Assembly: GCA_905250025.1 (NCBI GenBank)
Contig: CAJNOJ010000140.1
Span: 62,001-126,000 of the forward strand
Direction: 5' to 3'
DNA length: 64,000 nt
From: Adineta ricciae
Taxonomy: Eukaryota > Rotifera > Eurotatoria > Adinetida > Adinetidae
The translations under genes were made by a program, and so were the position numbers. The notes under the pieces were generated by a model. It was given only the letters and a program-made list of their open reading frames with translations, was not told the origin of the DNA and did no database searches. Position 1 is the first letter of the stretch; every line of letters starts with the position of its first letter. Shown piece by piece: positions 61,404 through 63,982 of the stretch.

Positions 61404-63982
61404 ATGATGACCGATGTTCAACGTTTTTTTGCTACTGGTGATGAACCTATGGGAAGCCGACCACCTATTCTTGATCTGAAAGATGTTCCTGCACTGCCAT
61501 TAGAGAAAGCGGTCCACACCCTAAAAGAGCAAATCAAAATCATTCGCAGCATGGCCACCGAAGCGAAGAATAGAACAATGAATCTAGCCGATGGTCTTAG
61601 TCATGATGAATCTGCTTCCATCTACCTATATACCATGGAGCATAAACAGCCACAGAACAATGTTTTTATGAGACTTAATAAAGCTCTTTACAACAATAGC
61701 CAGGCGTCATTGAACGCATGGTGTACGTATTTGAAACTCTTTATGGCTGCGCTAGACAAACTACCACCCGTCCGCTGCACAGTTTACCGCGCTGGTAAAG
61801 GCGATTTAACAGGAAAATACAAAGTGGATTCATTTTGGTGGTGGTGGGGTTTTAATTCTTGCGTTAAGTCCAAAAAGAGTATAGATAGAATTATTGGCTC
61901 AAATGGTATTCGAACTGTATTTCGAATTGAGTGCTTCAATGGGAAAGACATATCCAAGCATTCGACTTCGAAGAATAATACTGAGATCTTACTGATGCCT
62001 GGTACCCGTTTACGTGTGACTGAAATTACAAAGCTTACAAAAGGAGTAGTCGTAATTCGCTTGAGCGAAGAAACGAACCAAGATGGTGAGAATGCGCCTA
62101 TTGACACTGCAACATCATCAATACCCGAGACGACGTCTTCGAAAAAAGTTAATATCACAACTTCAAACCAAGCGAATGGTAAGATTTCGTTCCTTCAACA
62201 AGGGTGTATAAAACCAATTCTCGTTCTTATCATCTTTTCGATTGTTTTAGATCTGTATGCATCTTCAAACGGTGATCAAGCATGTCAGTTTCGAACAGGT
62301 GAGTAACTATAAACGATACGAAATAAGTATGCAACCGCCTCGATCAAATGCTCGCTTTTTAGAACCACGATGCTTTGACTATCAGTATCATGAGAACGGA
62401 AATCGATCCATAGTAAAGCCAGATGAACTTGAAATTTACTTACAGCATCCTCCGTCCACTACACAAGCAGATACTATTGATCGCATTTCTGGATCGCTCA
62501 TTGGAATGGCTTTGGGTGATGCTCTCGGTGCTCATGTCGAATTTCGACCGAGAGACTTCCTCTTGGAGCATCCTGTAACAAACCTTGAGAGCGGTGGAAC
62601 TTGGGGTCTGGAAAAGGGACAGGTAATTTACTGATAGAAGGGCAGAAAAAATAATCTGAGGTTTTTACTTCACTCTTCATCATCAACATGTATTTTAGTT
62701 CACGGATGACACGTCCATGGCTTTGTGTTTAGCTATTTCACTTGTGGCTCGTCATGATTTTGTCATGTACGATCAATTAGTACGCTACAAATGGTGGTTT
62801 CAGCATGGTTATATGTCATCAACCGGATCTTGCTTTGATATTGGCACGGCCACTAAACAAGCTATATTGGAGTTTGAACAACGTCAGAAAGAATTTGCAA
62901 AGTCTCACAACATACCTCTTAATCGAATAGACTATCTTTCTGATCCTTATCTACTCTCGGCATTCGACGCCAGATGCAGTCAAGATGGTGTAGCTGGTAA
63001 TGGCGCTTTGATGCGATTGGCTCCCGTACCCTTGTTTTTCTATAAATATCCCGAATGTGCTGTCGAGTTGTCTGGTTTAAGTGGTCTAATTACTCATGGT
63101 GATCGGAAAGCTTACGATGCTTGTCGCTATTATGGCGCTCTTATTGTTGCAGCTGTTCGAGGCGAAACTAAGAACGCATTGACCGATAATAATTTCTATT
63201 ATAATCACGAACAATGGTTTAATGGTGTTAAACTTTGTCCAGAAATTATGGAAATTGCTAGAGGTTCATACAAACGAGAAGGGGGATACGATGAGGGCAT
63301 TCGAGGCAAAGGGTACATTGTCAGTGCACTTGAAGCTGCTCTGTGGGCTTTTTATTATGATAGCAATTCGTTCAAAGTCGGTGCGTTATCTGCAGTTAAC
63401 CTTGGTGACGACACTGATACGACAGCTGCTATTTATGGTCAATTGGCAGGTGCATTCTATGGTTATCATAGTCTACCTCGTGAGTGGGTACAGCAAGTTT
63501 ATGCTAGAAAATTTATCCTTTGTCTGAGCGATTGGATTATTTACGAAGGCAATCAATGGGGTCCGAAAAGATCGATGGTCAATCAACTTCTTCCATTGTC
63601 ACGGCATGAGAACGATGTTGATATTCATTCATTGCCTCCAAAGAAACCAACAAATACTGCTAAACCAAAGGAAATGTTCAATCCTAATCCGCCAGCTGGA
63701 AGACTATCTCGCAAAACTTCCTTTGTTGCGAAGGAAGAATCCATGCTGTCTACAAAAAAGTCACCGTCTCAGGCCCCTCAAGGTGCAAAATCATTCTCAA
63801 AGACAAGAACGAGCCCACCAAGAGCACAGACTCGTAGGAATAGCGTTCTCGATGGACGCAAACCTAGTTCATTATCTAGACAAAGAGTGAATTCTCAAAA
63901 CTCCAGAGAAAAGCCTGTTTCTAAAACAGCTCCACCCGTCCATCAACCTCAAAGACTTCGAGCGTTCAGTCAAAAAAAATGA
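61404..63982 (+). CDS. Predicted fusion: ADP-ribosyltransferase - membrane segment - ADP-ribosylhydrolase (3 exons)
   Basis: Join(61404..62298, 62363..62622, 62699..63982), 812 aa. Residues about 20-210 are an R-S-E type ADP-ribosyltransferase: CTVYRAGKGDL (Arg129), WWWWGFNSCVKS (Ser152/156) and NTEILLMPGTRLRV (catalytic-type Glu194; two residues earlier is Asn, not Glu/Gln). Residues 269-285 (IKPILVLIIFSIVLDLY) form a likely membrane helix. Exon 1 ends at a consensus GTGAGT; skipping 64 bp to TTTTTAG continues in frame into a DraG/ARH hydrolase: GSLIGMALGDALGAHVEF, FTDDTSMALCLA (386-397), AGNGALMRLAPVP and NLGDDTDTTAAIYG (metal Asps 622, 623, 625). A basic Ser/Pro-rich tail fills the last 130 residues. 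If the first intron is retained, the ART part stops at 62306 and the hydrolase would be separate. Confidence 0.75.

What the first reader, a model, noticed from the sequence alone, without database searches (positions are those of the whole stretch)
61404..63982. ADP-ribosylation writer and eraser predicted in one polypeptide (ART-TM-ARH)
An R-S-E ADP-ribosyltransferase domain and a complete DraG/ARH hydrolase are joined in frame by a 64-bp intron with consensus GTGAGT donor and TTTTTAG acceptor, typical of introns in this window. ART toxins or enzymes and ARH hydrolases are normally separate proteins that counteract each other (as in the DraT/DraG pair). One protein holding both would be a self-limiting or cyclic ADP-ribosylation device. 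The hydrophobic segment at residues 269-285 might even place the two activities on opposite sides of a membrane.
Basis: partly seen in the sequence, partly recalled or inferred. Interest (0 to 1): 0.9.

Follow-up and report, generated by a model that had tools for sequence, protein, structure and literature searches.

The report
Rotifer ADP-ribose writer–eraser fusion gene
A bdelloid rotifer gene really does join an ADP-ribosyltransferase-type domain and an ADP-ribosyl-hydrolase in one predicted protein, and related rotifers carry the same pairing, but the proposed membrane segment is an intron and the transferase half lacks one of its usual active-site residues.

Summary
The fusion holds at gene-model level; the membrane segment does not. 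The gene (bdelloid Adineta ricciae) has four exons (61404-62178, 62251-62298, 62363-62622, 62699-63982) predicting a soluble 788-aa protein: R-S-E-type ART, flexible linker, complete Tri1/DraG-like ARH, disordered tail. The 'TM' residues come from an unrecognised intron, 62179-62250. Three paralogues (85% to 37% identity in the ART) share the intron positions, phases and a 48-nt mini-exon; the deposited protein makes the same joins. ART+ARH proteins recur in Adineta and Rotaria (31 of 120 hits shown). The self-limiting writer/eraser idea is weakened here: the ART keeps R, S and the final E but has N-T-E for E-x-E, and its exon is no better conserved than the introns (dN/dS about 0.5 against 0.12 for the ARH core). 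Of 27 fused proteins with readable motifs only 2 keep both canonical sites. I favour an eraser guided or tuned by a modified ART (inferred). Writer–eraser fusions are known (PARP14; SirTM–Zn-macro), and bacteria use ART/ARH as toxin/immunity pairs: a new variant of a known kind. Transcription and activity are untested.

The parts
61404..62178 (+). Exon 1: start codon(s) and ART domain (R129 codon 61788-61790, S152 codon 61857-61859, N-T-E at 61977-61985), then start of the linker
62179..62250 (+).
   Evidence: GTAAGA..TTTTAG; same position and phase 1 in C143 (71 bp), C360 (46 bp), C470a (54 bp); absent from deposited protein P0001
62251..62298 (+). Exon 2: 48-nt symmetric mini-exon (phase 1-1), encodes DLYASSNGDQACQFRT with the split first codon
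   Evidence: Exactly 48 nt in four A. ricciae copies, window included; similar peptides at this place in A. steineri P0004/P0005 and Rotaria socialis P0009 (exon borders in those species not checked)
62299..62362 (+).
   Evidence: same position and phase in three paralogous copies
62363..62622 (+). Exon 3: ARH N-terminal region including the G-D-A-L-G motif
   Evidence: PF03747 profile positions 1-47 match here, 24.7 bits
62623..62698 (+). Intron 3 (76 bp), phase 0
   Evidence: conserved in three paralogous copies
62699..63982 (+). Exon 4: ARH core with metal-site motifs F-T-D-D-T (62699-62713) and G-D-D-T-D-T (to 63421), then disordered basic tail and stop

Best explanation
One nuclear gene of the bdelloid Adineta ricciae, with four exons, predicts a soluble 788-aa protein: ART-fold domain (about residues 30-224), flexible linker (about 226-268) and mini-exon, ARH domain (about 308-652), disordered basic tail. 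No membrane segment. Shown by computation: the fused gene model, its conservation, both folds, the catalytic motifs. Inferred: the ARH is an active Mg-dependent ADP-ribosyl hydrolase of the Tri1/DraG kind and is the main enzymatic output. The ART keeps R, S and the last E (so probably binds NAD+) but not the first E of E-x-E, so it is probably not a standard arginine transferase; it most likely acts as a target-recognition or NAD-sensing arm that brings the eraser to substrates of the large family of intact ART paralogues, or tunes it. My confidence: about 0.95 that it is one fused soluble gene product; about 0.4 for the ART-guided-eraser mechanism.
Against: No transcript or assay was seen. 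Loss of one residue does not prove loss of activity, and ARTs with other residues two before the catalytic E may use other targets (recalled). Two fused Rotaria proteins (P0008, P0017) keep both canonical sites, so a dual enzyme exists at sequence level elsewhere in the family. Between window and C143 exon 1 (ART) is 91.4% identical, no more than the introns (93.0-94.7%) or 500 bp upstream (92.9%), so constraint on the ART is weak; this also fits decay or fast target-driven change. The short ARH N-terminal region (275-345) has dN 0.019 and dS 0.021, too few changes to read. The ART profile match is modest: in 8 fused proteins scanned, ART passed the Pfam cut-off in 3, fell below it in 3 and was not reported in 2. 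Guidance to ART substrates is inference only.
Confidence: 0.5

Rival explanations
1. Self-limiting writer/eraser: both domains are active and the ARH removes what the ART adds, as the first reader proposed (without the membrane).
For: R, S and catalytic E present in the ART, ARH ligand motifs present. P0008 and P0017 keep R-S-ExE plus all ARH ligands. PARP14 has both activities (abstract of PMC10499325).
Against: First E of E-x-E is N in the window copy; only 2 of 27 fused proteins with readable motifs keep both canonical sites; ART evolves faster than the ARH core.
Confidence: 0.2
2. NAD+-consuming switch: the ART half acts as an NAD+ glycohydrolase or modifies a non-arginine target, and the ARH clears ADP-ribose adducts.
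For: R, S and final E kept; ART2.2-like fold. That R-S-E ARTs can be NADases is recalled.
Against: No direct evidence; mammalian ART3/ART4, which deviate in this motif, are described as apparently acatalytic (passages of PMC2576468).
Confidence: 0.17
3. Decaying fusion: domain shuffling in a large gene family made the pairing, and one half is drifting without a role.
For: Fused proteins have lost ART residues (8 of 27 canonical against 23 of 25 unfused A. ricciae loci) and ARH ligands (20 of 27 intact against 87 of 89 unfused hits) more often than unfused ones; exon 1 is no better conserved between window and C143 than the introns; the fused label needs 10 changes on the ARH tree.
Against: Reading frame, splice sites and the 48-nt mini-exon are kept down to 37-40% ART identity and similar linker peptides occur across genera; dN/dS in the ART is about 0.5, below 1.
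Confidence: 0.18
4. Two adjacent genes or transcripts, the ARH starting on its own.
For: An ATG-headed ARH frame is open through intron 2 in the window, and in-frame ATGs inside intron 2 also exist in C143 and C360.
Against: C470a has no ATG before the ARH motif, and the longer C143 frame has stops; conserved mini-exon and phases; deposited models of several species fuse the domains.
Confidence: 0.03

Closest known systems
Tre1/Tri1-type and Listeria ART-ARH toxin/immunity pairs (PDB 6dre/6drh, 8za7)
   Different: In bacteria these are two proteins; here one chain, in an animal; the ART has N-x-E; the Tri1 curated cut-off is not reached.
PARP14 (ARTD writer plus hydrolytic macrodomain)
   Same: ADP-ribose writer and eraser types in one polypeptide (abstract of PMC10499325).
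   Different: Different domain families: PARP-type ART and macrodomain, not R-S-E ART and ARH.
SirTM-Zn-macro fusion (Mfs1), fungi and others
   Same: A writer/eraser pair found in operons and also fused in one chain (passages of PMC11490716).
   Different: Sirtuin writer and Zn-macrodomain eraser, other folds.
DraT/DraG
   Different: Separate proteins; DraG NCBIfam score 115.7, well below cut-off 337.
Vertebrate ARTC family (ART2.2)
   Different: First E of E-x-E missing; no predicted hydrophobic segment, whereas vertebrate ARTs are GPI-anchored or secreted (partly recalled).

Membership tests
R-S-E ADP-ribosyltransferase (PF01129, ARTC-like) | Profile match over curated cut-off | tested here: met
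   27.5 bits against 22.3 on exon 1; 24.5 on P0001
R-S-E ADP-ribosyltransferase (PF01129, ARTC-like) | ART fold and the three key residues R, S, E | tested here: met
Arginine-specific ART (R-S-ExE) | Glutamate two residues before the catalytic E | tested here: not met
   N-T-E in window and C143; N-D-E in C360; E-N-E in C470a
Arginine-specific ART (R-S-ExE) | Transferase activity on arginine | not testable with these tools
   needs enzyme assay
ADP-ribosylhydrolase ARH/DraG (PF03747) | Full-length profile match and fold | tested here: met
ADP-ribosylhydrolase ARH/DraG (PF03747) | Metal-site motifs T-D-D and D-x-D-T (role recalled) | tested here: met
   F-T-D-D-T and L-G-D-D-T-D-T present
Tri1 (NCBIfam NF041672 equivalog) | Score over curated cut-off 490 | tested here: not met
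   218.3 bits
DraG (TIGR02662 equivalog) | Score over curated cut-off 337.05 | tested here: not met
   115.7 bits
   Segment is intron 62179-62250; 19-residue hydropathy maximum 1.33 after splicing
Writer-eraser fusion proteins (PARP14, Mfs1) | Writer-type and eraser-type ADP-ribose domains in one chain | tested here: met
   (gene-model level)
Writer-eraser fusion proteins (PARP14, Mfs1) | Both activities demonstrated | not testable with these tools
   needs enzyme assay; motif evidence is against a canonical arginine writer here
Anti-phage defence protein (PADLOC models) | Match to a defence model at E up to 0.01 | tested here: inconclusive
   0 families for P0001 and P0008; the library is one of anti-phage systems

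The most novel reading that the evidence does not exclude
Bdelloid ART-ARH fusions follow a one-active-site rule: fusing a writer to an eraser makes one of them expendable as an enzyme, so each fused protein becomes either an eraser steered by a pseudo-writer, which borrows the writer's substrate recognition, or a writer carrying a pseudo-eraser that may sense ADP-ribose. Evidence: of 27 fused proteins with readable motifs (31 found, 4 dropped), 18 keep only the ARH ligands, 6 only the canonical ART site, 2 both, 1 neither, while 87 of 89 unfused ARH hits and 23 of 25 unfused A. ricciae ART loci are intact. The kinship-naive Fisher test gives p 6e-4, but only 4 independent contrasts on well-supported branches exist (on average 0 the same way, 2.4 opposite, 1.6 no difference), so it is not statistically established.
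Probability: 0.3. Interest if true: 0.75.

Novelty: new variant of a known kind. Interest (0 to 1): 0.55.

Why it matters
ADP-ribose writers and erasers usually meet as separate proteins. A natural, recurrent ART–ARH fusion in animals gives a system for asking how opposing activities evolve when tethered, and whether a writer domain can be turned into a guide for an eraser. It also shows a pairing known from bacterial toxin/immunity systems built into one animal protein, and it corrects a plausible but false membrane topology.

Tried and rejected
Transmembrane segment: rejected (intron 62179-62250). Separate ARH gene with its own start: thought unlikely, though ATGs in intron 2 exist in three of the four copies. 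Chance adjacency of two large families: same-strand ART-then-ARH pairs sit at C140 (window), C143, C360:22717-25140, C470:5666-7778 and C470:18620-20484, plus one interrupted at an assembly N (C360:13097); the shared exon structure was shown for the first four.

Prokaryotic origin of the fusion: 80 prokaryotic ARH loci were kept (of 383 relatives). Stop-to-stop ARH frames reach at most 524 codons; of the 20 longest printed, four have 129 or more codons before the ARH match (L111, L085, L131, L087) and L072 has 124. I did not identify what these encode; I read the 8 longest frames by eye (L111 and L085 among them) and recognised no ART. A Pfam scan of such frames failed and was not repeated. 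Best identities were about 46% (Anaerolineales L069, Paenibacillus L070, Chthonomonadaceae L081), which fits a bacterial-type ARH, but no tree of origin was built.

A PDB sequence search with the ART half gave nothing significant (best E 0.25); the fold search did. PADLOC gave no match. A second protein search with the profile A2 showed the same fused proteins at the top, and none of the 24 new rows carries a PF01129 label; I did not test those rows further. Only the best 120 of 2064 and 120 of 2644 hits were shown. No Adineta vaga fusion was among them; that is not proof of absence.

A test of independent evolutionary contrasts did not reach significance. The 31 fused proteins were cut to 27 because motifs of P0012, P0060, P0086 and P0108 were not covered. 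P0055 showed C at the arginine position and a gap; it counts as non-canonical either way. P0010 and P0014 have identical ARH cores, so rows are not independent. The ART control used 30 loci out of 133 matches and one species.

Full report
Identity. The protein database lists the window's gene as P0001, an 'unnamed protein product' of Adineta ricciae on a contig of 267340 bases, with both PF03747 and PF01129. The contig length equals that of the window's contig C140.

Gene structure. Two others are needed: 62623-62698, and 62179-62250, which the finding had read as protein. With all three removed the exons are 775, 48, 260 and 1284 nt and give 788 residues. I compared three other copies in the genome: C143 (85% identity in the ART, 94% in the ARH exon), C360 (40% and 60%) and C470a (37% and 64%). 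In all four the introns have phases 1, 1, 0 and the second exon is exactly 48 nt, although intron lengths differ (72/71/46/54; 64/62/52/51; 76/75/61/52). P0001 follows the same ART-to-ARH joins. P0001 differs at its C-end: it leaves the window's frame near the end of exon 4 and continues with a Cys-rich sequence with a hydrophobic stretch, located at about 65070-65300 in window numbering, beyond the window; the window's own frame reaches a stop at 63982, as does the C143 copy at the matching place. I take the deposited end to be a probable chimera.

The membrane segment. Residues 269-285 of the finding are the translation of part of 62179-62250. In C143 a one-base length change means the read-through frame is lost while the spliced frame is kept; in C360 and C470a read-through meets a stop. 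Without the intron the highest 19-residue hydropathy is 1.33 (2.22 with it); 14 other fused homologues lie between 0.97 and 1.58. P0001's own high value (2.72) comes from its aberrant C-end (position 770).

Catalytic residues. In the window the ART has R129, S152 and N-T-E with the final E194; the ARH has T-D-D-T, T-H-G-D and G-D-D-T-D-T. In 30 fetched A. ricciae ART loci (of 133 matches), N-x-E occurs in the four ARH-linked loci L009, L010, L013 and L014; the fifth ARH-linked locus, L015 (C470a), keeps E-N-E; of the 25 others, 23 have R and E-x-E, L034 has N-E-Q, and L033 reads H where R is expected. C470a instead has F-T-S-Q-T and G-D-E-T-G-S in its ARH. Passages of PMC2576468 describe R-S-EXE as typical of arginine-specific ARTs and ART3/ART4, which deviate, as apparently acatalytic.

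Selection. Between window and C143 (NG86): ART dN 0.074, dS 0.150; linker 0.083, 0.120; ARH N-terminal part 0.019, 0.021 (few changes); ARH core 0.017, 0.148; tail 0.073, 0.134. Nucleotide identity: exon 1 91.4%, introns 93.0, 93.5 and 94.7%, 500 bp upstream 92.9%, mini-exon 93.8%, exon 3 96.5%, exon 4 94.7%. So the ARH core is clearly the more constrained half, and the ART exon is no better conserved than non-coding DNA.

Spread. The fused label needs 10 changes on the ARH tree, at least 8 forced by starred branches, against 28.1 in shuffles: clustered, but with several gains or losses. Some 'unfused' rows are partial models (for example P0031), which may inflate the count.

One-site pattern. 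Of 27 fused proteins with readable motifs: ARH ligands only 18, canonical ART only 6, both 2 (P0008, P0017), neither 1; Fisher p 6e-4 without regard to kinship; with kinship only 4 independent contrasts on starred branches, on average none the same way, 2.4 opposite and 1.6 without difference. Controls: ARH ligands intact in 87 of 89 unfused hits against 20 of 27 fused; canonical ART in 23 of 25 unfused A. ricciae loci against 8 of 27 fused. These comparisons ignore shared descent, and the ART control comes from one species while the fused set comes from several.

Mechanism. I favour a soluble ARH eraser with an ART-derived arm for recognition or NAD sensing. A working writer plus eraser remains possible, most of all for P0008 and P0017. 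None of this is shown by experiment.

Literature. Searches covered rotifer, bdelloid, fusion, immunity and motif terms; one search covered PARP14. I read listings and abstract starts, plus passages of PMC9503650, PMC3482391, PMC10789625, PMC2576468, PMC11125620 and PMC11490716 and the outline and abstract of PMC10499325. None of what I saw reports a bdelloid ART-ARH fusion; (Adineta ricciae with ribosyltransferase) gave 0 papers; one search listed 20 of 29. Subscription papers are mostly not in that library. [quoted passage not shown] PMC10789625 describes PARP14 as a writer with an eraser macrodomain, and an ARH-type eraser as immunity in the Tre1 system. PMC11490716 states that the macrodomain-sirtuin pair occurs alone, in an extended operon or fused in one chain. 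So writer-eraser fusions are known; this domain pair in one chain appears to be a new variant.

Noticed in passing
P0124, P0125, P0127, P0128, P0131, P0133 (AIG1/GTPase); P0051, P0058 (caspase C14); P0025, P0029, P0030 and others (SAM); P0080 (EF-hand): Other bdelloid ARH domains are predicted in one protein with AIG1/GIMAP-type GTPase, caspase C14, SAM or EF-hand domains, an immunity-like set of partners. Precomputed Pfam labels only.
   Followed up: no
Whole genome G000: Large families: 150 PF01129 ART matches among 150 scored of 553 candidates, and 58 PF03747 matches (exon pieces counted apart) in 130 Mb.
   Followed up: partly
C360:11500-20500 (L149) and C470:15000-22500 (L151): Further ART-ARH copies interrupted at single assembly N positions, so their structure could not be read in full.
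   Followed up: partly
about 65070-65300 in window numbering (L039), beyond the window: Deposited model P0001 joins the gene to a small Cys-rich frame with a hydrophobic stretch; probably an annotation chimera.
   Followed up: partly
P0002, P0003 (Adineta steineri): Predicted proteins with two ARH domains in tandem, seen in the alignment.
   Followed up: no
P0007, P0020, P0021, P0022, P0026 (Rotaria): Predicted fusions with two or three ART matches before the ARH; the ART aligned with the window's has Q in place of the key R and the ARH has T-D-D-G.
   Followed up: partly
L133, L134, L136, L141, L145 (Pedobacter): Bacterial ARH frames with a C-terminal part that looks NADAR-like (recalled, not tested).
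   Followed up: no
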